DNA of 64,000 nt from Hippasteria phrygiana (Eukaryota; Echinodermata; Asteroidea; Valvatida; Goniasteridae). Below are positions 20,401 through 64,000 of the stretch, piece after piece. The stretch is taken from positions 434,001 to 498,000 of the forward strand of contig JAZGUH010000183.1 in the NCBI GenBank assembly GCA_037893225.1, written 5' to 3'. The position numbers were made by a program, and so were the translations under genes. The number at the start of each line of letters is the position of its first letter. The first letter of the stretch is position 1. The notes beneath the pieces were generated by a model. The model worked only from the letters and a program-made list of their open reading frames with translations. It had not been told where the DNA came from and did not search any database.

Positions 20401-23400
20401 ATTATCGGCGGCTTCTTAGAGTTAACACTTGTGGAGAAAATTCAAACCTCGCAATGTTTATTTTCTTCCCGGCCACCATCTGTGTGCAGATTACCTTTTA
20501 TTTATTGCTCCATGCATGTCAAATTCCCTGGGGTATGGACTTGCTTTACTCATTCATAATTGCATGAAATATCAACCAAATTCAGTAATTTTGACATGTA
20601 TGGATAGCTTAGATCTGGGGCTACATGTTGCAATTATCGGCGGCTTCTTAGAGTTAACACTTGTGGAGAAAATTCAAACCTCGCAATGTTTATTTTCTTC
20701 CCGGCCACCATCTGTGTGCAGATTACCTTTTATTTATTGCTCCATGCATGTCAAATTCCCTGGGGTATGGTCTTGCTTTACTCATTCATAATTGCATGAA
20801 ATATCAACCAAATTCAGTAATTTTGACATGTATGGATAGCTTAGATCTGGCGCTACATGTTGCAATTATCTGCGGCTTCTTAGAGTTAAAACTTGTGGAG
20901 AAAATTCAAACCTCGCAATGTTTATTTTCTTTCCGGCCAACATCTGTGTGCATATTACCTTCTATTTATTGCTCCATGCCTGTCAAATTCCCTGGGGTAT
21001 GACTTGCTTTACTCATTCATAATTGCATGAAATATCAACCAAATTCAGTAATTTTGACATGTATGGATAGCTTAGATCTGGCGCTACATGTTGCAATTAT
21101 CGGCGGCTTCTTAGAGTTAACACTTGTGGAGAAAATTCAAACCTCGCAATGTTTATTTTCTTCCTGGCCACCATCTGTGTGCAGATTACCGCCTATTTAT
21201 TGCTCCATGCATGTCAAATTCCCTGGGGTATGGACTTGCTTTACTCATTCATAATTGCATGAAATATCAACCAAATTCAGTAATTTTGACATGTATGGAT
21301 AGCTTAGATCTGGCGCTACATGTTGCAATTATCGGCGGCTTCTTAGAGTTAACACTTGTGGAGAAAATTCAAACCTCGCAATGTTTATTTTCTTCCTGGC
21401 CACCATCTGTGTGCAGATTACCGCCTATTTATTGCTCCATGCATGTCAAATTCCCTGGGGTATGGACTTGCTTTACTCATTCATAATTGCATGAAATATC
21501 AACCAAATTCAGTAATTTTGACATGTATGGATAGCTTAGATCTGGGGCTACATGTTGCAATTATCGGCGGCTTCTTAGAGTTAACACTTGTGGAGAAAAT
21601 TCAAACCTCGCAATGTTTATTTTCTTCCCGGCCACCATCTGTGTGCAGATTACCTTTTATTTATTGCTCCATGCATGTCAAATTCCCTGGGGTATGGTCT
21701 TGCTTTACTCATTCATAATTGCATGAAATATCAACCAAATTCAGTAATTTTGACATGTATGGATAGCTTAGATCTGGCGCTACATGTTGCAATTATCTGC
21801 GGCTTCTTAGAGTTAAAACTTGTGGAGAAAATTCAAACCTCGCAATGTTTATTTTCTTTCCGGCCAACATCTGTGTGCATATTACCTTCTATTTATTGCT
21901 CCATGCCTGTAAAAATTCCCTGGGGTATGACTTGCTTTACTCATTCATAATTGCATGAAATATCAACCAAATTCAGTAATTTTGACATGTATGGATAGCT
22001 TAGATCTGGCGCTACATGTTGCAATTATCGGCGGCTTCTTAGAGTTAACACTTGTGGAGAAAATTCAAACCTCGCAATGTTTATTTTCTTCCTGGCCACC
22101 ATCTGTGTGCAGATTACCGCCTATTTATTGCTCCATGCATGTCAAATTCCCTGGGGTATGGACTTGCTTTACTCATTCATAATTGCATGAAATATCAACC
22201 AAATTCAGTAATTTTGACATGTATGGATAGCTTAGATCTGGCGCTACATGTTGCAATTATCGGCGGCTTCTTAGAGTTAACACTTGTGGAGAAAATTCAA
22301 ACCTCGCAATGTTTATTTTCTTTCCGGCCAACATCTGTGTCCATGTTACCGTCTATTTATTGCTCCATGCATGTCAAATTCCCTGGGGTATGGACTTGCT
22401 TTACTCATTCATAATTGCATGAAATATCAACCAAATTCAGTAATTTTGACATGTATGGATAGCTTAGATCTGGCGCTACATGTTGCAATTATCGGCGGCT
22501 TCTTAGAGTTAACACTTGTGGAGAAAATTCAAACCTCGCAATGTTTATTTTCTTCCCGGCCACCATCTGTGTGCAGATTACCTTTTATTTATTGCTCCAT
22601 GCATGTCAAATTCCCTGGGGTATGGACTTGCTTTACTCATTCATAATTGCATGAAATATCAACCAAATTCAGTAATTTTGACATGTATGGATAGCTTAGA
22701 TCTGGGGCTACATGTTGCAATTATCGGCGGCTTCTTAGAGTTAACACTTGTGGAGAAAATTCAAACCTCGCAATGTTTATTTTCTTCCCGGCCACCATCT
22801 GTGTGCAGATTACCTTTTATTTATTGCTCCATGCATGTCAAATTCCCTGGGGTATGGTCTTGCTTTACTCATTCATAATTGCATGAAATATCAACCAAAT
22901 TCAGTAATTTTGACATGTATGGATAGCTTAGATCTGGCGCTACATGTTGCAATTATCTGCGGCTTCTTAGAGTTAAAACTTGTGGAGAAAATTCAAACCT
23001 CGCAATGTTTATTTTCTTTCCGGCCAACATCTGTGTGCATATTACCTTCTATTTATTGCTCCATGCCTGTCAAATTCCCTGGGGTATGACTTGCTTTACT
23101 CATTCATAATTGCATGAAATATCAACCAAATTCAGTAATTTTGACATGTATGGATAGCTTAGATCTGGCGCTACATGTTGCAATTATCGGCGGCTTCTTA
23201 GAGTTAACACTTGTGGAGAAAATTCAAACCTCGCAATGTTTATTTTCTTCCTGGCCACCATCTGTGTGCAGATTACCGCCTATTTATTGCTCCATGCATG
23301 TCAAATTCCCTGGGGTATGGACTTGCTTTACTCATTCATAATTGCATGAAATATCAACCAAATTCAGTAATTTTGACATGTATGGATAGCTTAGATCTGG

Positions 23401-25732
23401 CGCTACATGTTGCAATTATCGGCGGCTTCTTAGAGTTAACACTTGTGGAGAAAATTCAAACCTCGCAATGTTTATTTTCTTCCTGGCCACCATCTGTGTG
23501 CAGATTACCGCCTATTTATTGCTCCATGCATGTCAAATTCCCTGGGGTATGGACTTGCTTTACTCATTCATAATTGCATGAAATATCAACCAAATTCAGT
23601 AATTTTGACATGTATGGATAGCTTAGATCTGGCGCTACATGTTGCAATTATCGGCGGCTTCTTAGAGTTAACACTTGTGGAGAAAATTCAAACCTCGCAA
23701 TGTTTATTTTCTTTCCGGCCAACATCTGTGTACATGTTACCGTCTATTTATTGCTCCATGCATGTCAAATTCCCTGGGGTATGGACTTGCTTTACTCATT
23801 CATAATTGCATGAAATATCAACCAAATTCAGTAATTTTGACATGTATGGATAGCTTAGATCTGGCGCTACATGTTGCAATTATCGGCGGCTTCTTAGAGT
23901 TAACACTTGTGGAGAAAATTCAAACCTCGCAATGTTTATTTTCTTCCCGGCCACCATCTGTGTGCAGATTACCTTTTATTTATTGCTCCATGCATGTCAA
24001 ATTCCCTGGGGTATGGACTTGCTTTACTCATTCATAATTGCATGAAATATCAACCAAATTCAGTAATTTTGACATGTATGGATAGCTTAGATCTGGGGCT
24101 ACATGTTGCAATTATCGGCGGCTTCTTAGAGTTAACACTTGTGGAGAAAATTCAAACCTCGCAATGTTTATTTTCTTCCCGGCCACCATCTGTGTGCAGA
24201 TTACCTTTTATTTATTGCTCCATGCATGTCAAATTCCCTGGGTTATGGTCTTGCTTTACTCATTCATAATTGCATGAAATATCAACCAAATTCAGTAATT
24301 TTGACATGTATGGATAGCTTAGATCTGGCGCTACATGTTGCAATTATCTGCGGCTTCTTAGAGTTAAAACTTGTGGAGAAAATTCAAACCTCGCAATGTT
24401 TATTTTCTTTCCGGCCAACATCTGTGTGCATATTACCTTCTATTTATTGCTCCATGCCTGTCAAATTCCCTGGGGTATGACTTGCTTTACTCATTCATAA
24501 TTGCATGAAATATCAACCAAATTCAGTAATTTTGACATGTATGGATAGCTTAGATCTGGCGCTACATGTTGCAATTATCGGCGGCTTCTTAGAGTTAACA
24601 CTTGTGGAGAAAATTCAAACCTCGCAATGTTTATTTTCTTCCTGGCCACCATCTGTGTGCAGATTACCGCCTATTTATTGCTCCATGCATGTCAAATTCC
24701 CTGGGGTATGGACTTGCTTTACTCATTCATAATTGCATGAAATATCAACCAAATTCAGTAATTTTGACATGTATGGATAGCTTAGATCTGGCGCTACATG
24801 TTGCAATTATCGGCGGCTTCTTAGAGTTAACACTTGTGGAGAAAATTCAAACCTCGCAATGTTTATTTTCTTTCCGGCCAACATCTGTGTACATGTTACC
24901 GTCTATTTATTGCTCCATGCATGTCAAATTCCCTGGGGTATGGACTTGCTTTACTCATTCATAATTGCATGAAATATCAACCAAATTCAGTAATTTTGAC
25001 ATGTATGGATAGCTTAGATCTGGCGCTACATGTTGCAATTATCGGCGGCTTCTTAGAGTTAACACTTGTGGAGAAAATTCAAACCTCGCAATGTTTATTT
25101 TCTTCCCGGCCACCATCTGTGTGCAGATTACCTTTTATTTATTGCTCCATGCATGTCAAATTCCCTGGGGTATGGACTTGCTTTACTCATTCATAATTGC
25201 ATGAAATATCAACCAAATTCAGTAATTTTGACATGTATGGATAGCTTAGATCTGGGGCTACATGTTGCAATTATCGGCGGCTTCTTAGAGTTAACACTTG
25301 TGGAGAAAATTCAAACCTCGCAATGTTTATTTTCTTCCCGGCCACCATCTGTGTGCAGATTACCTTTTATTTATTGCTCCATGCATGTCAAATTCCCTGG
25401 GGTATGGTCTTGCTTTACTCATTCATAATTGCATGAAATATCAACCAAATTCAGTAATTTTGACATGTATGGATAGCTTAGATCTGGCGCTACATGTTGC
25501 AATTATCTGCGGCTTCTTAGAGTTAAAACTTGTGGAGAAAATTCAAACCTCGCAATGTTTATTTTCTTTCCGGCCAACATCTGTGTGCATATTACCTTCT
25601 ATTTATTGCTCCATGCCTGTCAAATTCCCTGGGGTATGACTTGCTTTACTCATTCATAATTGCATGAAATATCAACCAAATTCAGTAATTTTGACATGTA
25701 TGGATAGCTTAGATCTGGCGCTACATGTTGCA

Positions 25733-25964
25733 ATTATCGGCGGCTTCTTAGAGTTAACACTTGTGGAGAAAATTCAAACCTCGCAATGTTTATTTTCTTC
25801 CTGGCCACCATCTGTGTGCAGATTACCTTTTATTTATTGCTCCATGCATGTCAAATTCCCTGGGGTATGGACTTGCTTTACTCATTCATAATTGCATGAA
25901 ATATCAACCAAATTCAGTAATTTTGACATGTATGGATAGCTTAGATCTGGCGCTACATGTTGCA
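25733..25964. repeat. D-left/A'-right chimeric monomer (unique)
   Basis: CCTGG at p68-p72 is D-type (T at 25802); CAGATTACCTTTTA at p87-p100 is A-type (T at 25828), with C219 at the end. The unit follows C, as D does, and precedes D-D-F-E, as A' does. The switch lies at 25803-25827. Only one copy exists in the window; the corresponding place in super-repeat copy 2 (46136) is an ordinary D. Confidence 0.9.
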
Positions 25965-27124
25965 ATTATCGGCGGCTTCTTAGAGTTAACACTTGTGGAG
26001 AAAATTCAAACCTCGCAATGTTTATTTTCTTCCTGGCCACCATCTGTGTGCAGATTACCGCCTATTTATTGCTCCATGCATGTCAAATTCCCTGGGGTAT
26101 GGACTTGCTTTACTCATTCATAATTGCATGAAATATCAACCAAATTCAGTAATTTTGACATGTATGGATAGCTTAGATCTGGCGCTACATGTTGCAATTA
26201 TCGGCGGCTTCTTAGAGTTAACACTTGTGGAGAAAATTCAAACCTCGCAATGTTTATTTTCTTCCTGGCCACCATCTGTGTGCAGATTACCGCCTATTTA
26301 TTGCTCCATGCATGTCAAATTCCCTGGGGTATGGACTTGCTTTACTCATTCATAATTGCATGAAATATCAACCAAATTCAGTAATTTTGACATGTATGGA
26401 TAGCTTAGATCTGGCGCTACATGTTGCAATTATCGGCGGCTTCTTAGAGTTAACACTTGTGGAGAAAATTCAAACCTCGCAATGTTTATTTTCTTTCCGG
26501 CCAACATCTGTGTCCATGTTACCGTCTATTTATTGCTCCATGCATGTCAAATTCCCTGGGGTATGGACTTGCTTTACTCATTCATAATTGCATGAAATAT
26601 CAACCAAATTCAGTAATTTTGACATGTATGGATAGCTTAGATCTGGCGCTACATGTTGCAATTATCGGCGGCTTCTTAGAGTTAACACTTGTGGAGAAAA
26701 TTCAAACCTCGCAATGTTTATTTTCTTTCCGGCCAACATCTGTGTACATGTTACCGTCTATTTATTGCTCCATGCATGTCAAATTCCCTGGGGTATGGAC
26801 TTGCTTTACTCATTCATAATTGCATGAAATATCAACCAAATTCAGTAATTTTGACATGTATGGATAGCTTAGATCTGGCGCTACATGTTGCAATTATCGG
26901 CGGCTTCTTAGAGTTAACACTTGTGGAGAAAATTCAAACCTCGCAATGTTTATTTTCTTCCCGGCCACCATCTGTGTGCAGATTACCTTTTATTTATTGC
27001 TCCATGCATGTCAAATTCCCTGGGGTATGGACTTGCTTTACTCATTCATAATTGCATGAAATATCAACCAAATTCAGTAATTTTGACATGTATGGATAGC
27101 TTAGATCTGGGGCTACATGTTGCA

Positions 27125-27355
27125 ATTATCTGCGGCTTCTTAGAGTTAACACTTGTGGAGAAAATTCAAACCTCGCAATGTTTATTTTCTTTCCGGCCAA
27201 CATCTGTGTGCATATTACCTTCTATTTATTGCTCCATGCCTGTCAAATTCCCTGGGGTATGACTTGCTTTACTCATTCATAATTGCATGAAATATCAACC
27301 AAATTCAGTAATTTTGACATGTATGGATAGCTTAGATCTGGCGCTACATGTTGCA
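27125..27355. repeat. C-type monomer with T7/C26
   Basis: 231-bp C unit that has T at p7 but C at p26 (GTTAAC kept), following an A that ends in G219. Recurs at 33617, 47296 and 53324. It stands where B-C would be expected, so it probably marks an old one-monomer loss. The T7/C26 pair is a third combination, besides G7/A26 in the fusion at 17619. Confidence 0.87.
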
Positions 27356-29210
27356 ATTATCGGCGGCTTCTTAGAGTTAACACTTGTGGAGAAAATTCAA
27401 ACCTCGCAATGTTTATTTTCTTCCTGGCCACCATCTGTGTGCAGATTACCGCCTATTTATTGCTCCATGCATGTCAAATTCCCTGGGGTATGGACTTGCT
27501 TTACTCATTCATAATTGCATGAAATATCAACCAAATTCAGTAATTTTGACATGTATGGATAGCTTAGATCTGGCGCTACATGTTGCAATTATCGGCGGCT
27601 TCTTAGAGTTAACACTTGTGGAGAAAATTCAAACCTCGCAATGTTTATTTTCTTCCTGGCCACCATCTGTGTGCAGATTACCGCCTATTTATTGCTCCAT
27701 GCATGTCAAATTCCCTGGGGTATGGACTTGCTTTACTCATTCATAATTGCATGAAATATCAACCAAATTCAGTAATTTTGACATGTATGGATAGCTTAGA
27801 TCTGGCGCTACATGTTGCAATTATCGGCGGCTTCTTAGAGTTAACACTTGTGGAGAAAATTCAAACCTCGCAATGTTTATTTTCTTTCCGGCCAACATCT
27901 GTGTACATGTTACCGTCTATTTATTGCTCCATGCATGTCAAATTCCCTGGGGTATGGACTTGCTTTACTCATTCATAATTGCATGAAATATCAACCAAAT
28001 TCAGTAATTTTGACATGTATGGATAGCTTAGATCTGGCGCTACATGTTGCAATTATCGGCGGCTTCTTAGAGTTAACACTTGTGGAGAAAATTCAAACCT
28101 CGCAATGTTTATTTTCTTCCCGGCCACCATCTGTGTGCAGATTACCTTTTATTTATTGCTCCATGCATGTCAAATTCCCTGGGTTATGGTCTTGCTTTAC
28201 TCATTCATAATTGCATGAAATATCAACCAAATTCAGTAATTTTGACATGTATGGATAGCTTAGATCTGGCGCTACATGTTGCAATTATCTGCGGCTTCTT
28301 AGAGTTAAAACTTGTGGAGAAAATTCAAACCTCGCAATGTTTATTTTCTTTCCGGCCAACATCTGTGTGCATATTACCTTCTATTTATTGCTCCATGCCT
28401 GTCAAATTCCCTGGGGTATGACTTGCTTTACTCATTCATAATTGCATGAAATATCAACCAAATTCAGTAATTTTGACATGTATGGATAGCTTAGATCTGG
28501 CGCTACATGTTGCAATTATCGGCGGCTTCTTAGAGTTAACACTTGTGGAGAAAATTCAAACCTCGCAATGTTTATTTTCTTCCTGGCCACCATCTGTGTG
28601 CAGATTACCGCCTATTTATTGCTCCATGCATGTCAAATTCCCTGGGGTATGGACTTGCTTTACTCATTCATAATTGCATGAAATATCAACCAAATTCAGT
28701 AATTTTGACATGTATGGATAGCTTAGATCTGGCGCTACATGTTGCAATTATCGGCGGCTTCTTAGAGTTAACACTTGTGGAGAAAATTCAAACCTCGCAA
28801 TGTTTATTTTCTTTCCGGCCAACATCTGTGTACATGTTACCGTCTATTTATTGCTCCATGCATGTCAAATTCCCTGGGGTATGGACTTGCTTTACTCATT
28901 CATAATTGCATGAAATATCAACCAAATTCAGTAATTTTGACATGTATGGATAGCTTAGATCTGGCGCTACATGTTGCAATTATCGGCGGCTTCTTAGAGT
29001 TAACACTTGTGGAGAAAATTCAAACCTCGCAATGTTTATTTTCTTCCCGGCCACCATCTGTGTGCAGATTACCTTTTATTTATTGCTCCATGCATGTCAA
29101 ATTCCCTGGGGTATGGACTTGCTTTACTCATTCATAATTGCATGAAATATCAACCAAATTCAGTAATTTTGACATGTATGGATAGCTTAGATCTGGGGCT
29201 ACATGTTGCA

Positions 29211-29442
29211 ATTATCGGCGGCTTCTTAGAGTTAACACTTGTGGAGAAAATTCAAACCTCGCAATGTTTATTTTCTTCCCGGCCACCATCTGTGTGCAGA
29301 TTACCGCCTATTTATTGCTCCATGCATGTCAAATTCCCTGGGGTATGGACTTGCTTTACTCATTCATAATTGCATGAAATATCAACCAAATTCAGTAATT
29401 TTGACATGTATGGATAGCTTAGATCTGGCGCTACATGTTGCA
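29211..29442. repeat. B-left/D-right chimeric monomer (duplication junction)
   Basis: CCCGG at p68-p72 (C at 29280) with ACCGCCTA at p93-p100 (G at 29306). It follows A with G219, as B does, and precedes F, as D does. Its right half is where the match with 37164 onward begins. The copy in the recent tract is at 49382-49613. Confidence 0.9.
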
Positions 29443-32400
29443 ATTATCGGCGGCTTCTTAGAGTTAACACTTGTGGAGAAAATTCAAACCTCGCAATGTT
29501 TATTTTCTTTCCGGCCAACATCTGTGTCCATGTTACCGTCTATTTATTGCTCCATGCATGTCAAATTCCCTGGGGTATGGACTTGCTTTACTCATTCATA
29601 ATTGCATGAAATATCAACCAAATTCAGTAATTTTGACATGTATGGATAGCTTAGATCTGGCGCTACATGTTGCAATTATCGGCGGCTTCTTAGAGTTAAC
29701 ACTTGTGGAGAAAATTCAAACCTCGCAATGTTTATTTTCTTTCCGGCCAACATCTGTGTACATGTTACCGTCTATTTATTGCTCCATGCATGTCAAATTC
29801 CCTGGGGTATGGACTTGCTTTACTCATTCATAATTGCATGAAATATCAACCAAATTCAGTAATTTTGACATGTATGGATAGCTTAGATCTGGCGCTACAT
29901 GTTGCAATTATCGGCGGCTTCTTAGAGTTAACACTTGTGGAGAAAATTCAAACCTCGCAATGTTTATTTTCTTCCCGGCCACCATCTGTGTGCAGATTAC
30001 CTTTTATTTATTGCTCCATGCATGTCAAATTCCCTGGGGTATGACTTGCTTTACTCATTCATAATTGCATGAAATATCAACCAAATTCAGTAATTTTGAC
30101 ATGTATGGATAGCTTAGATCTGGCGCTACATGTTGCAATTATCGGCGGCTTCTTAGAGTTAACACTTGTGGAGAAAATTCAAACCTCGCAATGTTTATTT
30201 TCTTCCTGGCCACCATCTGTGTGCAGATTACCGCCTATTTATTGCTCCATGCATGTCAAATTCCCTGGGGTATGGACTTGCTTTACTCATTCATAATTGC
30301 ATGAAATATCAACCAAATTCAGTAATTTTGACATGTATGGATAGCTTAGATCTGGCGCTACATGTTGCAATTATCGGCGGCTTCTTAGAGTTAACACTTG
30401 TGGAGAAAATTCAAACCTCGCAATGTTTATTTTCTTTCCGGCCAACATCTGTGTACATGTTACCGTCTATTTATTGCTCCATGCATGTCAAATTCCCTGG
30501 GGTATGGACTTGCTTTACTCATTCATAATTGCATGAAATATCAACCAAATTCAGTAATTTTGACATGTATGGATAGCTTAGATCTGGCGCTACATGTTGC
30601 AATTATCGGCGGCTTCTTAGAGTTAACACTTGTGGAGAAAATTCAAACCTCGCAATGTTTATTTTCTTCCCGGCCACCATCTGTGTGCAGATTATCTTTT
30701 ATTTATTGCTCCATGCATGTCAAATTCCCTGGGGTATGGACTTGCTTTACTCATTCATAATTGCATGAAATATCAACCAAATTCAGTAATTTTGACATGT
30801 ATGGATAGCTTAGATCTGGGGCTACATGTTGCAATTATCGGCGGCTTCTTAGAGTTAACACTTGTGGAGAAAATTCAAACCTCGCAATGTTTATTTTCTT
30901 CCCGGCCACCATCTGTGTGCAGATTACCTTTTATTTATTGCTCCATGCATGTCAAATTCCCTGGGGTATGGTCTTGCTTTACTCATTCATAATTGCATGA
31001 AATATCAACCAAATTCAGTAATTTTGACATGTATGGATAGCTTAGATCTGGCGCTACATGTTGCAATTATCTGCGGCTTCTTAGAGTTAAAACTTGTGGA
31101 GAAAATTCAAACCTCGCAATGTTTATTTTCTTTCCGGCCAACATCTGTGTGCATATTACCTTCTATTTATTGCTCCATGCCTGTCAAATTCCCTGGGGTA
31201 TGACTTGCTTTACTCATTCATAATTGCATGAAATATCAACCAAATTCAGTAATTTTGACATGTATGGATAGCTTAGATCTGGCGCTACATGTTGCAATTA
31301 TCGGCGGCTTCTTAGAGTTAACACTTGTGGAGAAAATTCAAACCTCGCAATGTTTATTTTCTTCCTGGCCACCATCTGTGTGCAGATTACCGCCTATTTA
31401 TTGCTCCATGCATGTCAAATTCCCTGGGGTATGGACTTGCTTTACTCATTCATAATTGCATGAAATATCAACCAAATTCAGTAATTTTGACATGTATGGA
31501 TAGCTTAGATCTGGCGCTACATGTTGCAATTATCGGCGGCTTCTTAGAGTTAACACTTGTGGAGAAAATTCAAACCTCGCAATGTTTATTTTCTTTCCGG
31601 CCAACATCTGTGTACATGTTACCGTCTATTTATTGCTCCATGCATGTCAAATTCCCTGGGGTATGGACTTGCTTTACTCATTCATAATTGCATGAAATAT
31701 CAACCAAATTCAGTAATTTTGACATGTATGGATAGCTTAGATCTGGCGCTACATGTTGCAATTATCGGCGGCTTCTTAGAGTTAACACTTGTGGAGAAAA
31801 TTCAAACCTCGCAATGTTTATTTTCTTCCCGGCCACCATCTGTGTGCAGATTACCTTTTATTTATTGCTCCATGCATGTCAAATTCCCTGGGGTATGGAC
31901 TTGCTTTACTCATTCATAATTGCATGAAATATCAACCAAATTCAGTAATTTTGACATGTATGGATAGCTTAGATCTGGCGCTACATGTTGCAATTATCGG
32001 CGGCTTCTTAGAGTTAACACTTGTGGAGAAAATTCAAACCTCGCAATGTTTATTTTCTTCCTGGCCACCATCTGTGTGCAGATTACCGCCTATTTATTGC
32101 TCCATGCATGTCAAATTCCCTGGGGTATGGACTTGCTTGACTCATTCATAATTGCATGAAATATCAACCAAATTCAGTAATTTTGACATGTATGGATAGC
32201 TTAGATCTGGCGCTACATGTTGCAATTATCGGCGGCTTCTTAGAGTTAACACTTGTGGAGAAAATTCAAACCTCGCAATGTTTATTTTCTTCCTGGCCAC
32301 CATCTGTGTGCAGATTACCGCCTATTTATTGCTCCATGCATGTCAAATTCCCTGGGGTATGGACTTGCTTTACTCATTCATAATTGCATGAAATATCAAC

Positions 32401-32989
32401 CAAATTCAGTAATTTTGACATGTATGGATAGCTTAGATCTGGCGCTACATGTTGCAATTATCGGCGGCTTCTTAGAGTTAACACTTGTGGAGAAAATTCA
32501 AACCTCGCAATGTTTATTTTCTTTCCGGCCAACATCTGTGTCCATGTTACCGTCTATTTATTGCTCCATGCATGTCAAATTCCCTGGGGTATGGACTTGC
32601 TTTACTCATTCATAATTGCATGAAATATCAACCAAATTCAGTAATTTTGACATGTATGGATAGCTTAGATCTGGCGCTACATGTTGCAATTATCGGCGGC
32701 TTCTTAGAGTTAACACTTGTGGAGAAAATTCAAACCTCGCAATGTTTATTTTCTTTCCGGCCAACATCTGTGTACATGTTACCGTCTATTTATTGCTCCA
32801 TGCATGTCAAATTCCCTGGGGTATGGACTTGCTTTACTCATTCATAATTGCATGAAATATCAACCAAATTCAGTAATTTTGACATGTATGGATAGCTTAG
32901 ATCTGGCGCTACATGTTGCAATTATCGGCGGCTTCTTAGAGTTAACACTTGTGGAGAAAATTCAAACCTCGCAATGTTTATTTTCTTCC
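29281..32989. repeat. 3.7-kb internal duplication of the super-repeat, copy 1
   Basis: Chimera right half, then F-E-R / D-E-A-B-C / D-E-A'-D-D-F-E matches 37164-40872 at an offset of 7,883 bp. Three base differences were seen: T vs C at 30695/38578, G vs T at 32139/40022, and T vs C at 31133/39016. The same pair is repeated in super-repeat copy 2 (from about 49452 and 56871). Confidence 0.88.
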
Positions 32990-49800: not shown

Positions 49801-52800
49801 ATTTTGACATGTATGGATAGCTTAGATCTGGCGCTACATGTTGCAATTATCGGCGGCTTCTTAGAGTTAACACTTGTGGAGAAAATTCAAACCTCGCAAT
49901 GTTTATTTTCTTTCCGGCCAACATCTGTGTACATGTTACCGTCTATTTATTGCTCCATGCATGTCAAATTCCCTGGGGTATGGACTTGCTTTACTCATTC
50001 ATAATTGCATGAAATATCAACCAAATTCAGTAATTTTGACATGTATGGATAGCTTAGATCTGGCGCTACATGTTGCAATTATCGGCGGCTTCTTAGAGTT
50101 AACACTTGTGGAGAAAATTCAAACCTCGCAATGTTTATTTTCTTCCCGGCCACCATCTGTGTGCAGATTACCTTTTATTTATTGCTCCATGCATGTCAAA
50201 TTCCCTGGGGTATGACTTGCTTTACTCATTCATAATTGCATGAAATATCAACCAAATTCAGTAATTTTGACATGTATGGATAGCTTAGATCTGGCGCTAC
50301 ATGTTGCAATTATCGGCGGCTTCTTAGAGTTAACACTTGTGGAGAAAATTCAAACCTCGCAATGTTTATTTTCTTCCTGGCCACCATCTGTGTGCAGATT
50401 ACCGCCTATTTATTGCTCCATGCATGTCAAATTCCCTGGGGTATGGACTTGCTTTACTCATTCATAATTGCATGAAATATCAACCAAATTCAGTAATTTT
50501 GACATGTATGGATAGCTTAGATCTGGCGCTACATGTTGCAATTATCGGCGGCTTCTTAGAGTTAACACTTGTGGAGAAAATTCAAACCTCGCAATGTTTA
50601 TTTTCTTTCCGGCCAACATCTGTGTACATGTTACCGTCTATTTATTGCTCCATGCATGTCAAATTCCCTGGGGTATGGACTTGCTTTACTCATTCATAAT
50701 TGCATGAAATATCAACCAAATTCAGTAATTTTGACATGTATGGATAGCTTAGATCTGGCGCTACATGTTGCAATTATCGGCGGCTTCTTAGAGTTAACAC
50801 TTGTGGAGAAAATTCAAACCTCGCAATGTTTATTTTCTTCCCGGCCACCATCTGTGTGCAGATTATCTTTTATTTATTGCTCCATGCATGTCAAATTCCC
50901 TGGGGTATGGACTTGCTTTACTCATTCATAATTGCATGAAATATCAACCAAATTCAGTAATTTTGACATGTATGGATAGCTTAGATCTGGGGCTACATGT
51001 TGCAATTATCGGCGGCTTCTTAGAGTTAACACTTGTGGAGAAAATTCAAACCTCGCAATGTTTATTTTCTTCCCGGCCACCATCTGTGTGCAGATTACCT
51101 TTTATTTATTGCTCCATGCATGTCAAATTCCCTGGGGTATGGTCTTGCTTTACTCATTCATAATTGCATGAAATATCAACCAAATTCAGTAATTTTGACA
51201 TGTATGGATAGCTTAGATCTGGCGCTACATGTTGCAATTATCTGCGGCTTCTTAGAGTTAAAACTTGTGGAGAAAATTCAAACCTCGCAATGTTTATTTT
51301 CTTTCCGGCCAACATCTGTGTGCATATTACCTTCTATTTATTGCTCCATGCCTGTCAAATTCCCTGGGGTATGACTTGCTTTACTCATTCATAATTGCAT
51401 GAAATATCAACCAAATTCAGTAATTTTGACATGTATGGATAGCTTAGATCTGGCGCTACATGTTGCAATTATCGGCGGCTTCTTAGAGTTAACACTTGTG
51501 GAGAAAATTCAAACCTCGCAATGTTTATTTTCTTCCTGGCCACCATCTGTGTGCAGATTACCGCCTATTTATTGCTCCATGCATGTCAAATTCCCTGGGG
51601 TATGGACTTGCTTTACTCATTCATAATTGCATGAAATATCAACCAAATTCAGTAATTTTGACATGTATGGATAGCTTAGATCTGGCGCTACATGTTGCAA
51701 TTATCGGCGGCTTCTTAGAGTTAACACTTGTGGAGAAAATTCAAACCTCGCAATGTTTATTTTCTTTCCGGCCAACATCTGTGTACATGTTACCGTCTAT
51801 TTATTGCTCCATGCATGTCAAATTCCCTGGGGTATGGACTTGCTTTACTCATTCATAATTGCATGAAATATCAACCAAATTCAGTAATTTTGACATGTAT
51901 GGATAGCTTAGATCTGGCGCTACATGTTGCAATTATCGGCGGCTTCTTAGAGTTAACACTTGTGGAGAAAATTCAAACCTCGCAATGTTTATTTTCTTCC
52001 CGGCCACCATCTGTGTGCAGATTACCTTTTATTTATTGCTCCATGCATGTCAAATTCCCTGGGGTATGGACTTGCTTTACTCATTCATAATTGCATGAAA
52101 TATCAACCAAATTCAGTAATTTTGACATGTATGGATAGCTTAGATCTGGCGCTACATGTTGCAATTATCGGCGGCTTCTTAGAGTTAACACTTGTGGAGA
52201 AAATTCAAACCTCGCAATGTTTATTTTCTTCCTGGCCACCATCTGTGTGCAGATTACCGCCTATTTATTGCTCCATGCATGTCAAATTCCCTGGGGTATG
52301 GACTTGCTTGACTCATTCATAATTGCATGAAATATCAACCAAATTCAGTAATTTTGACATGTATGGATAGCTTAGATCTGGCGCTACATGTTGCAATTAT
52401 CGGCGGCTTCTTAGAGTTAACACTTGTGGAGAAAATTCAAACCTCGCAATGTTTATTTTCTTCCTGGCCACCATCTGTGTGCAGATTACCGCCTATTTAT
52501 TGCTCCATGCATGTCAAATTCCCTGGGGTATGGACTTGCTTTACTCATTCATAATTGCATGAAATATCAACCAAATTCAGTAATTTTGACATGTATGGAT
52601 AGCTTAGATCTGGCGCTACATGTTGCAATTATCGGCGGCTTCTTAGAGTTAACACTTGTGGAGAAAATTCAAACCTCGCAATGTTTATTTTCTTTCCGGC
52701 CAACATCTGTGTCCATGTTACCGTCTATTTATTGCTCCATGCATGTCAAATTCCCTGGGGTATGGACTTGCTTTACTCATTCATAATTGCATGAAATATC

Positions 52801-55800
52801 AACCAAATTCAGTAATTTTGACATGTATGGATAGCTTAGATCTGGCGCTACATGTTGCAATTATCGGCGGCTTCTTAGAGTTAACACTTGTGGAGAAAAT
52901 TCAAACCTCGCAATGTTTATTTTCTTTCCGGCCAACATCTGTGTACATGTTACCGTCTATTTATTGCTCCATGCATGTCAAATTCCCTGGGGTATGGACT
53001 TGCTTTACTCATTCATAATTGCATGAAATATCAACCAAATTCAGTAATTTTGACATGTATGGATAGCTTAGATCTGGCGCTACATGTTGCAATTATCGGC
53101 GGCTTCTTAGAGTTAACACTTGTGGAGAAAATTCAAACCTCGCAATGTTTATTTTCTTCCCGGCCACCATCTGTGTGCAGATTACCTTTTATTTATTGCT
53201 CCATGCATGTCAAATTCCCTGGGGTATGGACTTGCTTTACTCATTCATAATTGCATGAAATATCAACCAAATTCAGTAATTTTGACATGTATGGATAGCT
53301 TAGATCTGGGGCTACATGTTGCAATTATCTGCGGCTTCTTAGAGTTAACACTTGTGGAGAAAATTCAAACCTCGCAATGTTTATTTTCTTTCCGGCCAAC
53401 ATCTGTGTGCATATTACCTTCTATTTATTGCTCCATGCCTGTCAAATTCCCTGGGGTATGACTTGCTTTACTCATTCATAATTGCATGAAATATCAACCA
53501 AATTCAGTAATTTTGACATGTATGGATAGCTTAGATCTGGCGCTACATGTTGCAATTATCGGCGGCTTCTTAGAGTTAACACTTGTGGAGAAAATTCAAA
53601 CCTCGCAATGTTTATTTTCTTCCTGGCCACCATCTGTGTGCAGATTACCGCCTATTTATTGCTCCATGCATGTCAAATTCCCTGGGGTATGGACTTGCTT
53701 TACTCATTCATAATTGCATGAAATATCAACCAAATTCAGTAATTTTGACATGTATGGATAGCTTAGATCTGGCGCTACATGTTGCAATTATCGGCGGCTT
53801 CTTAGAGTTAACACTTGTGGAGAAAATTCAAACCTCGCAATGTTTATTTTCTTCCTGGCCACCATCTGTGTGCAGATTACCGCCTATTTATTGCTCCATG
53901 CATGTCAAATTCCCTGGGGTATGGACTTGCTTTACTCATTCATAATTGCATGAAATATCAACCAAATTCAGTAATTTTGACATGTATGGATAGCTTAGAT
54001 CTGGCGCTACATGTTGCAATTATCGGCGGCTTCTTAGAGTTAACACTTGTGGAGAAAATTCAAACCTCGCAATGTTTATTTTCTTTCCGGCCAACATCTG
54101 TGTACATGTTACCGTCTATTTATTGCTCCATGCATGTCAAATTCCCTGGGGTATGGACTTGCTTTACTCATTCATAATTGCATGAAATATCAACCAAATT
54201 CAGTAATTTTGACATGTATGGATAGCTTAGATCTGGCGCTACATGTTGCAATTATCGGCGGCTTCTTAGAGTTAACACTTGTGGAGAAAATTCAAACCTC
54301 GCAATGTTTATTTTCTTCCCGGCCACCATCTGTGTGCAGATTACCTTTTATTTATTGCTCCATGCATGTCAAATTCCCTGGGGTATGGACTTGCTTTACT
54401 CATTCATAATTGCATGAAATATCAACCAAATTCAGTAATTTTGACATGTATGGATAGCTTAGATCTGGGGCTACATGTTGCAATTATCGGCGGCTTCTTA
54501 GAGTTAACACTTGTGGAGAAAATTCAAACCTCGCAATGTTTATTTTCTTCCCGGCCACCATCTGTGTGCAGATTACCTTTTATTTATTGCTCCATGCATG
54601 TCAAATTCCCTGGGTTATGGTCTTGCTTTACTCATTCATAATTGCATGAAATATCAACCAAATTCAGTAATTTTGACATGTATGGATAGCTTAGATCTGG
54701 CGCTACATGTTGCAATTATCTGCGGCTTCTTAGAGTTAAAACTTGTGGAGAAAATTCAAACCTCGCAATGTTTATTTTCTTTCCGGCCAACATCTGTGTG
54801 CATATTACCTTCTATTTATTGCTCCATGCCTGTCAAATTCCCTGGGGTATGACTTGCTTTACTCATTCATAATTGCATGAAATATCAACCAAATTCAGTA
54901 ATTTTGACATGTATGGATAGCTTAGATCTGGCGCTACATGTTGCAATTATCGGCGGCTTCTTAGAGTTAACACTTGTGGAGAAAATTCAAACCTCGCAAT
55001 GTTTATTTTCTTCCTGGCCACCATCTGTGTGCAGATTACCGCCTATTTATTGCTCCATGCATGTCAAATTCCCTGGGGTATGGACTTGCTTTACTCATTC
55101 ATAATTGCATGAAATATCAACCAAATTCAGTAATTTTGACATGTATGGATAGCTTAGATCTGGCGCTACATGTTGCAATTATCGGCGGCTTCTTAGAGTT
55201 AACACTTGTGGAGAAAATTCAAACCTCGCAATGTTTATTTTCTTTCCGGCCAACATCTGTGTACATGTTACCGTCTATTTATTGCTCCATGCATGTCAAA
55301 TTCCCTGGGGTATGGACTTGCTTTACTCATTCATAATTGCATGAAATATCAACCAAATTCAGTAATTTTGACATGTATGGATAGCTTAGATCTGGCGCTA
55401 CATGTTGCAATTATCGGCGGCTTCTTAGAGTTAACACTTGTGGAGAAAATTCAAACCTCGCAATGTTTATTTTCTTCCCGGCCACCATCTGTGTGCAGAT
55501 TACCTTTTATTTATTGCTCCATGCATGTCAAATTCCCTGGGGTATGGACTTGCTTTACTCATTCATAATTGCATGAAATATCAACCAAATTCAGTAATTT
55601 TGACATGTATGGATAGCTTAGATCTGGGGCTACATGTTGCAATTATCGGCGGCTTCTTAGAGTTAACACTTGTGGAGAAAATTCAAACCTCGCAATGTTT
55701 ATTTTCTTCCCGGCCACCATCTGTGTGCAGATTACCTTTTATTTATTGCTCCATGCATGTCAAATTCCCTGGGGTATGGTCTTGCTTTACTCATTCATAA

Positions 55801-58800
55801 TTGCATGAAATATCAACCAAATTCAGTAATTTTGACATGTATGGATAGCTTAGATCTGGCGCTACATGTTGCAATTATCTGCGGCTTCTTAGAGTTAAAA
55901 CTTGTGGAGAAAATTCAAACCTCGCAATGTTTATTTTCTTTCCGGCCAACATCTGTGTGCATATTACCTTCTATTTATTGCTCCATGCCTGTCAAATTCC
56001 CTGGGGTATGACTTGCTTTACTCATTCATAATTGCATGAAATATCAACCAAATTCAGTAATTTTGACATGTATGGATAGCTTAGATCTGGCGCTACATGT
56101 TGCAATTATCGGCGGCTTCTTAGAGTTAACACTTGTGGAGAAAATTCAAACCTCGCAATGTTTATTTTCTTTCCGGCCAACATCTGTGTACATGTTACCG
56201 TCTATTTATTGCTCCATGCATGTCAAATTCCCTGGGGTATGGACTTGCTTTACTCATTCATAATTGCATGAAATATCAACCAAATTCAGTAATTTTGACA
56301 TGTATGGATAGCTTAGATCTGGCGCTACATGTTGCAATTATCGGCGGCTTCTTAGAGTTAACACTTGTGGAGAAAATTCAAACCTCGCAATGTTTATTTT
56401 CTTCCCGGCCACCATCTGTGTGCAGATTACCTTTTATTTATTGCTCCATGCATGTCAAATTCCCTGGGGTATGGACTTGCTTTACTCATTCATAATTGCA
56501 TGAAATATCAACCAAATTCAGTAATTTTGACATGTATGGATAGCTTAGATCTGGCGCTACATGTTGCAATTATCGGCGGCTTCTTAGAGTTAACACTTGT
56601 GGAGAAAATTCAAACCTCGCAATGTTTATTTTCTTCCTGGCCACCATCTGTGTGCAGATTACCGCCTATTTATTGCTCCATGCATGTCAAATTCCCTGGG
56701 GTATGGACTTGCTTTACTCATTCATAATTGCATGAAATATCAACCAAATTCAGTAATTTTGACATGTATGGATAGCTTAGATCTGGCGCTACATGTTGCA
56801 ATTATCGGCGGCTTCTTAGAGTTAACACTTGTGGAGAAAATTCAAACCTCGCAATGTTTATTTTCTTCCTGGCCACCATCTGTGTGCAGATTACCGCCTA
56901 TTTATTGCTCCATGCATGTCAAATTCCCTGGGGTATGGACTTGCTTTACTCATTCATAATTGCATGAAATATCAACCAAATTCAGTAATTTTGACATGTA
57001 TGGATAGCTTAGATCTGGCGCTACATGTTGCAATTATCGGCGGCTTCTTAGAGTTAACACTTGTGGAGAAAATTCAAACCTCGCAATGTTTATTTTCTTT
57101 CCGGCCAACATCTGTGTCCATGTTACCGTCTATTTATTGCTCCATGCATGTCAAATTCCCTGGGGTATGGACTTGCTTTACTCATTCATAATTGCATGAA
57201 ATATCAACCAAATTCAGTAATTTTGACATGTATGGATAGCTTAGATCTGGCGCTACATGTTGCAATTATCGGCGGCTTCTTAGAGTTAACACTTGTGGAG
57301 AAAATTCAAACCTCGCAATGTTTATTTTCTTTCCGGCCAACATCTGTGTACATGTTACCGTCTATTTATTGCTCCATGCATGTCAAATTCCCTGGGGTAT
57401 GGACTTGCTTTACTCATTCATAATTGCATGAAATATCAACCAAATTCAGTAATTTTGACATGTATGGATAGCTTAGATCTGGCGCTACATGTTGCAATTA
57501 TCGGCGGCTTCTTAGAGTTAACACTTGTGGAGAAAATTCAAACCTCGCAATGTTTATTTTCTTCCCGGCCACCATCTGTGTGCAGATTACCTTTTATTTA
57601 TTGCTCCATGCATGTCAAATTCCCTGGGGTATGACTTGCTTTACTCATTCATAATTGCATGAAATATCAACCAAATTCAGTAATTTTGACATGTATGGAT
57701 AGCTTAGATCTGGCGCTACATGTTGCAATTATCGGCGGCTTCTTAGAGTTAACACTTGTGGAGAAAATTCAAACCTCGCAATGTTTATTTTCTTCCTGGC
57801 CACCATCTGTGTGCAGATTACCGCCTATTTATTGCTCCATGCATGTCAAATTCCCTGGGGTATGGACTTGCTTTACTCATTCATAATTGCATGAAATATC
57901 AACCAAATTCAGTAATTTTGACATGTATGGATAGCTTAGATCTGGCGCTACATGTTGCAATTATCGGCGGCTTCTTAGAGTTAACACTTGTGGAGAAAAT
58001 TCAAACCTCGCAATGTTTATTTTCTTTCCGGCCAACATCTGTGTACATGTTACCGTCTATTTATTGCTCCATGCATGTCAAATTCCCTGGGGTATGGACT
58101 TGCTTTACTCATTCATAATTGCATGAAATATCAACCAAATTCAGTAATTTTGACATGTATGGATAGCTTAGATCTGGCGCTACATGTTGCAATTATCGGC
58201 GGCTTCTTAGAGTTAACACTTGTGGAGAAAATTCAAACCTCGCAATGTTTATTTTCTTCCCGGCCACCATCTGTGTGCAGATTACCTTTTATTTATTGCT
58301 CCATGCATGTCAAATTCCCTGGGGTATGGACTTGCTTTACTCATTCATAATTGCATGAAATATCAACCAAATTCAGTAATTTTGACATGTATGGATAGCT
58401 TAGATCTGGGGCTACATGTTGCAATTATCGGCGGCTTCTTAGAGTTAACACTTGTGGAGAAAATTCAAACCTCGCAATGTTTATTTTCTTCCCGGCCACC
58501 ATCTGTGTGCAGATTACCTTTTATTTATTGCTCCATGCATGTCAAATTCCCTGGGGTATGGTCTTGCTTTACTCATTCATAATTGCATGAAATATCAACC
58601 AAATTCAGTAATTTTGACATGTATGGATAGCTTAGATCTGGCGCTACATGTTGCAATTATCTGCGGCTTCTTAGAGTTAAAACTTGTGGAGAAAATTCAA
58701 ACCTCGCAATGTTTATTTTCTTCCCGGCCAACATCTGTGTGCATATTACCTTCTATTTATTGCTCCATGCCTGTCAAATTCCCTGGGGTATGACTTGCTT

Positions 58801-60510
58801 TACTCATTCATAATTGCATGAAATATCAACCAAATTCAGTAATTTTGACATGTATGGATAGCTTAGATCTGGCGCTACATGTTGCAATTATCGGCGGCTT
58901 CTTAGAGTTAACACTTGTGGAGAAAATTCAAACCTCGCAATGTTTATTTTCTTCCTGGCCACCATCTGTGTGCAGATTACCGCCTATTTATTGCTCCATG
59001 CATGTCAAATTCCCTGGGGTATGGACTTGCTTTACTCATTCATAATTGCATGAAATATCAACCAAATTCAGTAATTTTGACATGTATGGATAGCTTAGAT
59101 CTGGCGCTACATGTTGCAATTATCGGCGGCTTCTTAGAGTTAACACTTGTGGAGAAAATTCAAACCTCGCAATGTTTATTTTCTTTCCGGCCAACATCTG
59201 TGTACATGTTACCGTCTATTTATTGCTCCATGCATGTCAAATTCCCTGGGGTATGGACTTGCTTTACTCATTCATAATTGCATGAAATATCAACCAAATT
59301 CAGTAATTTTGACATGTATGGATAGCTTAGATCTGGCGCTACATGTTGCAATTATCGGCGGCTTCTTAGAGTTAACACTTGTGGAGAAAATTCAAACCTC
59401 GCAATGTTTATTTTCTTCCCGGCCACCATCTGTGTGCAGATTACCTTTTATTTATTGCTCCATGCATGTCAAATTCCCTGGGGTATGGACTTGCTTTACT
59501 CATTCATAATTGCATGAAATATCAACCAAATTCAGTAATTTTGACATGTATGGATAGCTTAGATCTGGCGCTACATGTTGCAATTATCGGCGGCTTCTTA
59601 GAGTTAACACTTGTGGAGAAAATTCAAACCTCGCAATGTTTATTTTCTTCCTGGCCACCATCTGTGTGCAGATTACCGCCTATTTATTGCTCCATGCATG
59701 TCAAATTCCCTGGGGTATGGACTTGCTTTACTCATTCATAATTGCATGAAATATCAACCAAATTCAGTAATTTTGACATGTATGGATAGCTTAGATCTGG
59801 CGCTACATGTTGCAATTATCGGCGGCTTCTTAGAGTTAACACTTGTGGAGAAAATTCAAACCTCGCAATGTTTATTTTCTTCCTGGCCACCATCTGTGTG
59901 CAGATTACCGCCTATTTATTGCTCCATGCATGTCAAATTCCCTGGGGTATGGACTTGCTTTACTCATTCATAATTGCATGAAATATCAACCAAATTCAGT
60001 AATTTTGACATGTATGGATAGCTTAGATCTGGCGCTACATGTTGCAATTATCGGCGGCTTCTTAGAGTTAACACTTGTGGAGAAAATTCAAACCTCGCAA
60101 TGTTTATTTTCTTTCCGGCCAACATCTGTGTCCATGTTACCGTCTATTTATTGCTCCATGCATGTCAAATTCCCTGGGGTATGGACTTGCTTTACTCATT
60201 CATAATTGCATGAAATATCAACCAAATTCAGTAATTTTGACATGTATGGATAGCTTAGATCTGGCGCTACATGTTGCAATTATCGGCGGCTTCTTAGAGT
60301 TAACACTTGTGGAGAAAATTCAAACCTCGCAATGTTTATTTTCTTTCCGGCCAACATCTGTGTACATGTTACCGTCTATTTATTGCTCCATGCATGTCAA
60401 ATTCCCTGGGGTATGGACTTGCTTTACTCATTCATAATTGCATGAAATATCAACCAAATTCAGTAATTTTGACATGTATGGATAGCTTAGATCTGGCGCT
60501 ACATGTTGCA
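40804..60510. repeat. Super-repeat copy 2: 85 monomers, 19,707 bp
   Basis: Same block order as 20401-40803, with two length changes. After the C unit at 45905 it reads D-D-E-A-A-C, where copy 1 has chimera-D-D-F-E-A-C (one monomer fewer). Near 53091 it lacks a two-monomer chimera-E pair (464 bp). 85 x 232 minus 13 = 19,707. Against the first 5.3 kb of copy 1 I found three base differences: C at 42315 vs A at 21912, G at 44646 vs T at 24243, and T at 45978 vs C at 25575. Confidence 0.9.
42195..42426. repeat. C2 monomer with the insertion only (CTGTACAAATT)
   Basis: Carries the extra A after p119 but keeps the following C, unlike the other seven C2 units (CTGTAAAAATT). Shared with 61902-62133. 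It is either the intermediate from which the A-rich form arose or a later A-to-C change. Confidence 0.88.
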
Positions 60511-63500
60511 ATTATCGGCGGCTTCTTAGAGTTAACACTTGTGGAGAAAATTCAAACCTCGCAATGTTTATTTTCTTCCCGGCCACCATCTGTGTGCAGA
60601 TTACCTTTTATTTATTGCTCCATGCATGTCAAATTCCCTGGGGTATGGACTTGCTTTACTCATTCATAATTGCATGAAATATCAACCAAATTCAGTAATT
60701 TTGACATGTATGGATAGCTTAGATCTGGGGCTACATGTTGCAATTATCGGCGGCTTCTTAGAGTTAACACTTGTGGAGAAAATTCAAACCTCGCAATGTT
60801 TATTTTCTTCCCGGCCACCATCTGTGTGCAGATTACCTTTTATTTATTGCTCCATGCATGTCAAATTCCCTGGGGTATGGTCTTGCTTTACTCATTCATA
60901 ATTGCATGAAATATCAACCAAATTCAGTAATTTTGACATGTATGGATAGCTTAGATCTGGCGCTACATGTTGCAATTATCTGCGGCTTCTTAGAGTTAAA
61001 ACTTGTGGAGAAAATTCAAACCTCGCAATGTTTATTTTCTTTCCGGCCAACATCTGTGTGCATATTACCTTCTATTTATTGCTCCATGCCTGTCAAATTC
61101 CCTGGGGTATGACTTGCTTTACTCATTCATAATTGCATGAAATATCAACCAAATTCAGTAATTTTGACATGTATGGATAGCTTAGATCTGGCGCTACATG
61201 TTGCAATTATCGGCGGCTTCTTAGAGTTAACACTTGTGGAGAAAATTCAAACCTCGCAATGTTTATTTTCTTCCTGGCCACCATCTGTGTGCAGATTACC
61301 GCCTATTTATTGCTCCATGCATGTCAAATTCCCTGGGGTATGGACTTGCTTTACTCATTCATAATTGCATGAAATATCAACCAAATTCAGTAATTTTGAC
61401 ATGTATGGATAGCTTAGATCTGGCGCTACATGTTGCAATTATCGGCGGCTTCTTAGAGTTAACACTTGTGGAGAAAATTCAAACCTCGCAATGTTTATTT
61501 TCTTCCTGGCCACCATCTGTGTGCAGATTACCGCCTATTTATTGCTCCATGCATGTCAAATTCCCTGGGGTATGGACTTGCTTTACTCATTCATAATTGC
61601 ATGAAATATCAACCAAATTCAGTAATTTTGACATGTATGGATAGCTTAGATCTGGGGCTACATGTTGCAATTATCGGCGGCTTCTTAGAGTTAACACTTG
61701 TGGAGAAAATTCAAACCTCGCAATGTTTATTTTCTTCCCGGCCACCATCTGTGTGCAGATTACCTTTTATTTATTGCTCCATGCATGTCAAATTCCCTGG
61801 GGTATGGTCTTGCTTTACTCATTCATAATTGCATGAAATATCAACCAAATTCAGTAATTTTGACATGTATGGATAGCTTAGATCTGGCGCTACATGTTGC
61901 AATTATCTGCGGCTTCTTAGAGTTAAAACTTGTGGAGAAAATTCAAACCTCGCAATGTTTATTTTCTTTCCGGCCAACATCTGTGTGCATATTACCTTCT
62001 ATTTATTGCTCCATGCCTGTACAAATTCCCTGGGGTATGACTTGCTTTACTCATTCATAATTGCATGAAATATCAACCAAATTCAGTAATTTTGACATGT
62101 ATGGATAGCTTAGATCTGGCGCTACATGTTGCAATTATCGGCGGCTTCTTAGAGTTAACACTTGTGGAGAAAATTCAAACCTCGCAATGTTTATTTTCTT
62201 CCTGGCCACCATCTGTGTGCAGATTACCGCCTATTTATTGCTCCATGCATGTCAAATTCCCTGGGGTATGGACTTGCTTTACTCATTCATAATTGCATGA
62301 AATATCAACCAAATTCAGTAATTTTGACATGTATGGATAGCTTAGATCTGGCGCTACATGTTGCAATTATCGGCGGCTTCTTAGAGTTAACACTTGTGGA
62401 GAAAATTCAAACCTCGCAATGTTTATTTTCTTTCCGGCCAACATCTGTGTCCATGTTACCGTCTATTTATTGCTCCATGCATGTCAAATTCCCTGGGGTA
62501 TGGACTTGCTTTACTCATTCATAATTGCATGAAATATCAACCAAATTCAGTAATTTTGACATGTATGGATAGCTTAGATCTGGCGCTACATGTTGCAATT
62601 ATCGGCGGCTTCTTAGAGTTAACACTTGTGGAGAAAATTCAAACCTCGCAATGTTTATTTTCTTCCCGGCCACCATCTGTGTGCAGATTACCTTTTATTT
62701 ATTGCTCCATGCATGTCAAATTCCCTGGGGTATGGACTTGCTTTACTCATTCATAATTGCATGAAATATCAACCAAATTCAGTAATTTTGACATGTATGG
62801 ATAGCTTAGATCTGGGGCTACATGTTGCAATTATCGGCGGCTTCTTAGAGTTAACACTTGTGGAGAAAATTCAAACCTCGCAATGTTTATTTTCTTCCCG
62901 GCCACCATCTGTGTGCAGATTACCTTTTATTTATTGCTCCATGCATGTCAAATTCCCTGGGGTATGGTCTTGCTTTACTCATTCATAATTGCATGAAATA
63001 TCAACCAAATTCAGTAATTTTGACATGTATGGATAGCTTAGATCTGGCGCTACATGTTGCAATTATCTGCGGCTTCTTAGAGTTAAAACTTGTGGAGAAA
63101 ATTCAAACCTCGCAATGTTTATTTTCTTTCCGGCCAACATCTGTGTGCATATTACCTTCTATTTATTGCTCCATGCCTGTCAAATTCCCTGGGGTATGAC
63201 TTGCTTTACTCATTCATAATTGCATGAAATATCAACCAAATTCAGTAATTTTGACATGTATGGATAGCTTAGATCTGGCGCTACATGTTGCAATTATCGG
63301 CGGCTTCTTAGAGTTAACACTTGTGGAGAAAATTCAAACCTCGCAATGTTTATTTTCTTCCTGGCCACCATCTGTGTGCAGATTACCGCCTATTTATTGC
63401 TCCATGCATGTCAAATTCCCTGGGGTATGGACTTGCTTTACTCATTCATAATTGCATGAAATATCAACCAAATTCAGTAATTTTGACATGTATGGATAGC

Positions 63501-64000
63501 TTAGATCTGGCGCTACATGTTGCAATTATCGGCGGCTTCTTAGAGTTAACACTTGTGGAGAAAATTCAAACCTCGCAATGTTTATTTTCTTCCTGGCCAC
63601 CATCTGTGTGCAGATTACCGCCTATTTATTGCTCCATGCATGTCAAATTCCCTGGGGTATGGACTTGCTTTACTCATTCATAATTGCATGAAATATCAAC
63701 CAAATTCAGTAATTTTGACATGTATGGATAGCTTAGATCTGGCGCTACATGTTGCAATTATCGGCGGCTTCTTAGAGTTAACACTTGTGGAGAAAATTCA
63801 AACCTCGCAATGTTTATTTTCTTTCCGGCCAACATCTGTGTACATGTTACCGTCTATTTATTGCTCCATGCATGTCAAATTCCCTGGGGTATGGACTTGC
63901 TTTACTCATTCATAATTGCATGAAATATCAACCAAATTCAGTAATTTTGACATGTATGGATAGCTTAGATCTGGCGCTACATGTTGCAATTATCGGCGGC
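60511..64000. repeat. Super-repeat copy 3, truncated by the window end
   Basis: A-B-C / D-D-B-C2 / D-F-A-B-C / D-D-E matches 40804-44281 at an offset of 19,707 bp and 20401-23878 at 40,110 bp. It shares the C2 form with C after the insertion (CTGTACAAATT, around 62020) with copy 2 and not with copy 1, so it is a sibling of copy 2. A 12-base partial monomer ends the window. Confidence 0.9.
63989..64000. repeat. Partial monomer at the window end
   Basis: The first 12 bases of the 277th unit, ATTATCGGCGGC, with G at p7. The array continues beyond the window. Confidence 0.97.

What the first reader, a model, noticed from the sequence alone, without database searches (positions are those of the whole stretch)
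20401..64000. Super-repeat of about 20 kb built from a 232-bp satellite
The order of more than 80 monomer subtypes repeats with offsets of 20,403 and 19,707 bp, giving two full copies and the start of a third. This is a third level of organisation: monomer 232 bp, HOR of 4-7 units, super-repeat of 85-88 units. Known HORs in other satellites are often shorter, so a 20-kb unit amplified in tandem stands out.
Basis: seen in the sequence. Interest (0 to 1): 0.75.

Follow-up and report, generated by a model that had tools for sequence, protein, structure and literature searches.

The report
Twenty-kilobase super-repeat in satellite DNA
A stretch of highly repetitive satellite DNA contains a block of about 20,000 letters copied in tandem almost without error, which shows how such arrays grow by copying large blocks; the pattern is real but of a kind already described in apes.

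Summary
The window is one satellite array: 276 monomers (232 of 232 bp, 44 of 231 bp) with only 40 distinct sequences. From 20,401 an 88-monomer block (20,403 bp) is followed by an 85-monomer copy (19,707 bp) and the first 15 monomers of a third. Copies 1 and 2 match at 19,695 of 19,707 aligned bases, apart from indels of one and two monomers; copies 2 and 3 at 3,478 of 3,478. Other alignments within the array are far worse (cost 73 against 8). Bases 1-20,400 form a different subtype domain without this repeat. Corrections: each copy holds 17-18 monomer types, not over 80, and the levels are not cleanly three. Seven rare types are exact crossover hybrids, and their neighbours fit in-register exchange in 10 of 11 contexts. 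I read this as stepwise amplification by out-of-register recombination, most recently of a 20-kb block. The closest known kind is the cascading superHOR of orangutan alpha satellite (58, 59 and a preliminary 84 monomers). Copy number beyond the window, organism, centromere function and assembly correctness could not be tested.

The parts
1..64000 (+). satellite array, 276 monomers of 232 or 231 bp plus 12 bases; strand as given, transcription unknown
1..20400 (.). left subtype domain, 88 monomers of 29 types, 20 of them absent on the right; no copy of the super-repeat
20401..40803 (+). super-repeat copy 1, 88 monomers, 20,403 bp, 18 distinct types (homology to copy 2 begins at 20,255, inside monomer 87)
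40804..60510 (+). super-repeat copy 2, 85 monomers, 19,707 bp, 17 distinct types
60511..64000 (+). start of super-repeat copy 3: 15 monomers identical to the start of copy 2, cut by the window edge
20401..26892 (+). first 28 monomers of copy 1: all 12 mismatches to copy 2 and a one-monomer indel
32921..33384 (+). two monomers (m, B) present in copy 1 and absent in copy 2 (464 bp; exact placement of the gap is ambiguous by whole-monomer similarity)

Best explanation
This is a higher-order repeat array of a 232-bp satellite (eukaryotic nuclear origin is inferred) in which a block of 85-88 monomers, about 20 kb, has been amplified in tandem by homologous, out-of-register recombination: unequal exchange between sister chromatids or break-induced replication. 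The array diversified into five main monomer classes in a loose A-B-C-D-E order and was reshuffled by crossovers inside monomers that kept the 232-bp register; blocks were then duplicated at several sizes, most recently the 20-kb block, in at least two events. Shown here: the copies and their identity, in-register hybrids with fitting neighbours, and the left limit of the super-repeat domain. Inferred: the enzyme pathway, the order of events, recency, and that more copies lie to the right.
For: Copies 1 and 2 have 12 mismatches in 19,707 aligned bp (0.06%) against a mean monomer-to-monomer divergence of 2.6%. All 276 monomers are 231 or 232 bp, and the two indels between the copies are 232 and 464 bp. 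Seven of 35 minor types are exact single-crossover hybrids of classes A-E (null mean 2.6, maximum 7 in 200 runs). In 10 of 11 distinct contexts the hybrid's two neighbours are those predicted by an in-register exchange (null mean 1.1, maximum 5 in 5,000). The homologous span of 103 monomers exceeds the unit of 85-88, so at least two events or three copies are needed. Precedent: a germline 56-kb tandem duplication in a human chromosome 9 alpha-satellite array (PMC12746033, passages).
Against: About 2.17 copies are visible, so a regular long array is not shown. All 12 mismatches lie in the first 28 monomers of copy 1 and none in the rest, so the copies are not of one age or were partly converted; eight of the 12 are in one monomer (115) and are probably one exchange, so the Fisher p of 1.5e-7, which treats them as independent, overstates the contrast. 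The exact-hybrid count touches its null maximum, and the wider count of types brought nearer by a hybrid reading (14) lies inside its null range (mean 8.5, maximum 15). Context A-K-D (3 occurrences) fails, and contexts C-W-K, j-W-K and W-K-X share monomers, so the 11 are not fully independent. No reads or flanks were available.
Confidence: 0.8

Rival explanations
1. A local, short-lived block duplication: the 20-kb segment was doubled or tripled once or twice and is not a standing unit of the array; no third level of organisation exists.
For: Only about 2.17 copies are seen; the left 20.4 kb show no such period; repeats of other sizes occur (20 monomers on the left, a suggested 26-32 inside the unit); a single germline event of 56 kb is known in a human array.
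Against: The homologous span (103 monomers) is longer than one unit, and the third start is in phase. The first 28 monomers of copy 1 are more diverged at the same period, which suggests that the period is older than the last event.
Confidence: 0.4
2. Assembly artefact: an overlap between contigs or haplotypes was laid down twice.
For: Exact identity over 11,249 bp that runs to the window edge, with one two-monomer difference nearby, is what an unmerged haplotype overlap could give; reads were not available.
Against: A third in-phase start exists, and copy 1 differs from copy 2 by 12 bases and a one-monomer indel in its first 28 monomers. These are arguments, not a test.
Confidence: 0.1
3. Chance resemblance of any two stretches of a homogeneous 5-monomer HOR array.
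For: Monomers are 97.4% alike on average; an order-3 Markov chain reaches a 48-monomer run in 9 of 500.
Against: Order-1 and order-2 chains do not in 500 runs each; other offsets and gapped placements are far worse; 16,925 aligned bases (116-190 against 203-275) are identical apart from the two missing monomers.
Confidence: 0.01

Closest known systems
Cascading superHORs of orangutan alpha satellite: 58mer on Y, 59mer on chromosome 13, preliminary 84mer on chromosome 5 (PMC12428378 abstract and passages; PMC11276891 abstract)
   Same: Very long unit in monomer count; monomer types recur within the unit (44 types in 58 there, 17-18 in 85-88 here); copy divergence far below monomer divergence (0.25% there among canonical copies, 0.06% here for copy 1 against copy 2).
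   Different: Monomer of 232 bp; unit of about 20 kb (an 84mer of about 171-bp monomers would be about 14 kb, my arithmetic); about 2.17 copies seen here against 67 (abstract) or 310 (body) for the Y 58mer; no CENP-B box here.
Germline tandem duplication in a human alpha-satellite array (chromosome 9, 56 kb, 69 HORs; PMC12746033, passages)
   Same: Tens of kb of a satellite array duplicated in tandem.
   Different: One new event in one pedigree; here the homologous span needs at least two events of one period.
Unequal-exchange (Smith 1976) and break-induced-replication models of satellite evolution, as reviewed in PMC8997354 (passages)
   Same: Both predict in-register expansion; the review says that nested HOR structures are harder to explain by unequal exchange and credits break-induced replication with explaining them.
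   Different: The present sequence does not decide between the models.

Membership tests
Higher-order repeat (HOR) array of a satellite | head-to-tail monomers of one family | tested here: met
   276 monomers; Tandem Repeats Finder reports 97% matches
Higher-order repeat (HOR) array of a satellite | copies of a multi-monomer unit far more alike than the monomers within it | tested here: met
   0.06% against a mean of 2.6%
Higher-order repeat (HOR) array of a satellite | many tandem copies of the unit | tested here: inconclusive
   two copies and 15 monomers of a third; the window ends there
Cascading superHOR (usage of PMC12428378) | monomer types recur within a very long unit | tested here: met
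   18 types in 88 monomers, 17 in 85
Alpha satellite | about 171-bp monomer | tested here: not met
   232 or 231 bp
Alpha satellite | CENP-B box, carried by a subset of monomers (motif recalled) | tested here: not met
   0 exact matches in the 64,000 bases, both strands
Centromeric satellite | occupied by the centromeric histone | not testable with these tools
   no chromatin data, organism unknown

The most novel reading that the evidence does not exclude
A standing, many-copy 20-kb super-repeat in a satellite that is not alpha satellite, among the longest satellite units in bases; the window catches its left edge, where the first copy is diverged and the inner copies are identical, so that expansion from inside the array could be read directly.
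Probability: 0.35. Interest if true: 0.5.

Novelty: new member of a known kind. Interest (0 to 1): 0.33.

Why it matters
It adds a clear case, readable at base level, of a satellite array growing by duplication of a block of about 20 kb, and it carries internal evidence (hybrid monomers with fitting neighbours) that rearrangement is homologous and in register. If the flanks hold more copies, the diverged first copy beside identical later ones would test whether arrays expand from the inside and age at the edge.

Tried and rejected
A 27-base conserved word has no exact match in viral contigs or genome contigs, and a 696-base query (three monomers) has no match in plasmids or phages at E 1e-5. 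This fits a eukaryotic nuclear satellite; the organism stays unidentified. Rfam on the first 1,000 bases gave 4 matches, all far below gathering scores, taken as chance.

Paper searches gave no named family. Six '232-bp satellite/repeat/monomer' phrases: 0 papers. Six conserved words in both orientations: 3 papers, each with one 12-base word, on unrelated subjects by title, not opened. 'Satellite' with '232 bp', 'higher-order repeat' and 'monomer': 2 papers; passages show that one mentions a 232-bp unit among mouse minor-satellite arrays (PMC3218096; sequence not compared) and the other a 2,232-bp deletion (PMC13174521). The single hit (PMC12286863) uses '20-kb' for SNP windows (passages). 'super-HOR' with a hyphen: 0 papers; 'superHOR' found the orangutan papers. 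The lists were seen as listings only, apart from PMC8997354, PMC12746033 and PMC11276891.

An intermediate level inside the unit was tested: blocks 116-141 and 144-175 align with score 39 against a null mean of 24.9 (sd 4.3, maximum 39.5 in 300 runs); the first block (88-115) does not join them significantly (31 and 20; 95% point 33). I call it suggestive only. The longest gap between variable columns of the monomer (51 bp) is not unusual (p about 0.10), so a protected segment is not claimed. The order-1 and order-2 nulls (300 runs each, maximum 16 and 40) were trained on the duplicated string itself and were replaced.

Full report
What is in the window. The 64,000 bases are one uninterrupted tandem array of a 232-bp satellite. 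An invariant word cuts it into 276 monomers, 232 of 232 bp and 44 of 231 bp, plus 12 bases; mean pairwise identity is 97.4%, the lowest 94.0%. There are only 40 distinct monomer sequences; the five commonest (A 56, B 35, C 34, D 28, E 25) make up 178 of 276. By nearest class the usual order is A-B-C-D-E (A to B 40, B to C 41, C to D 24, D to E 38, E to A 33 transitions), with frequent departures such as A to A 18 and C to A 14. Monomers are numbered from 0 below.

The super-repeat. From monomer 88 (base 20,401) the string of types runs for 88 monomers and starts again at monomer 176 (40,804) and at monomer 261 (60,511). Copies 1 and 2 align with 19,695 matches, 12 mismatches and two gaps, 232 and 464 bp. 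From monomer 116 to the end of copy 1 there is no mismatch in 13,447 aligned bases. Copy 2 and the 15 monomers of copy 3 agree at 3,478 of 3,478. Taking the longest exact run at each monomer offset, the two longest, 11,249 and 6,110 bp, belong to the super-repeat; the next is 3,267 bp, in the left part at offset 4,637 (20 monomers).

Is it more than chance? Order-1 and order-2 Markov strings of types trained on monomers 0-202 never reach the observed run of 48 (maximum 19 and 37 in 500 each); an order-3 chain does so in 9 of 500, because with so few words it replays its source. More telling is the comparison with other offsets. In 15-monomer windows only offsets of 85, 87, 88 and 173 monomers reach 99.97%; the best multiple of 5 other than 85 reaches 99.74%, and the median of the per-offset maxima is 98.3%. 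With gaps allowed, monomers 203-260 have one good partner (116-175, cost 8, which equals the price of the two missing monomers); the next placement with a different start costs 73. The first 15 monomers of copy 2 have two partners (cost 0 in copy 3, 1 in copy 1); the next costs 17.

The 85-88 positions hold 17-18 distinct sequences, not more than 80. The spacing between E-type monomers (a set chosen by hand) is 4 to 7 in 26 of 30 cases on the right and 2 to 4 in 18 of 24 on the left, so the short HOR is not uniform. The left 20.4 kb use 29 types, 20 of them not seen on the right, and contain no copy of the super-repeat (best placements of monomers 0-39 and 40-87 cost 83 and 122). Inside the unit a 26-32-monomer duplication is suggested but not firm. 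The structure is a nest of block duplications of several sizes more than three clean levels.

How it arose. A single tandem duplication gives a homologous span equal to its unit. Here the span is at least 103 monomers (88-190 onto 176-275) for a unit of 85-88, so at least two events or three copies with one period are needed. All 12 mismatches and the one-monomer indel lie in the first 28 monomers of copy 1, next to the left domain; eight of the 12 are in monomer 115 and look like one exchange. This fits an edge copy that escaped the latest round of homogenisation, but conversion would do as well.

Evidence on mechanism. Seven of 35 minor types (H, J, K, S, W, Y, e) are exact single-crossover hybrids of two main classes; the null gives 2.6 on average and 7 at most in 200 runs. 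Counting all types brought nearer by a hybrid reading gives 14, inside the null range (mean 8.5, maximum 15). The neighbour test is stronger: if a hybrid X/Y arose by exchange in register, its left neighbour should be of the class before X and its right neighbour of the class after Y. This holds in 10 of 11 distinct contexts (20 of 23 occurrences), the exception being A-K-D; random contexts give 1.1 on average and 5 at most in 5,000. Three of the contexts share monomers, so they are not fully independent. The result supports homologous, in-register rearrangement. Whether by unequal exchange or break-induced replication (both reviewed in PMC8997354, passages) the sequence cannot say.

Known kinds. 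Orangutan alpha satellite has cascading superHORs of 58 monomers (Y; 67 copies in the abstract, 310 in the body) and 59 (chromosome 13), with a preliminary 84mer on chromosome 5 (PMC12428378 abstract and passages; PMC11276891 abstract). A 56-kb germline tandem duplication in a human chromosome 9 array is reported in PMC12746033 (passages). The present unit is comparable in monomer count and longer in bases than an 84mer of about 171 bp (my arithmetic). It is not alpha satellite: 232-bp monomer and no exact CENP-B box in the window. I did not find the family named in print (searches; passages), and there was no match in viral contigs, prokaryote genomes, plasmids or phages with the queries.

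Limits. No flanks, reads, species name or chromatin data were available. A false join by the assembler seems unlikely because of the third in-phase start and the differences in copy 1, but it is not excluded.

Noticed in passing
1-20400: A second subtype domain of the same satellite with 20 private monomer types and its own 20-monomer repeat (1,509-4,775 recurs exactly 4,637 bp further on).
   Followed up: partly
1-64000, monomer alignment columns 68-98: 9 of the 15 common polymorphic columns of the monomer lie in a 31-bp stretch while much of the rest hardly varies; the reason is unknown, and the largest gap between variable columns is not significant.
   Followed up: partly
1-64000: Some rare monomer types are crossover hybrids between main classes with neighbours as predicted for in-register exchange; they could serve as markers for a history of the array.
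   Followed up: yes
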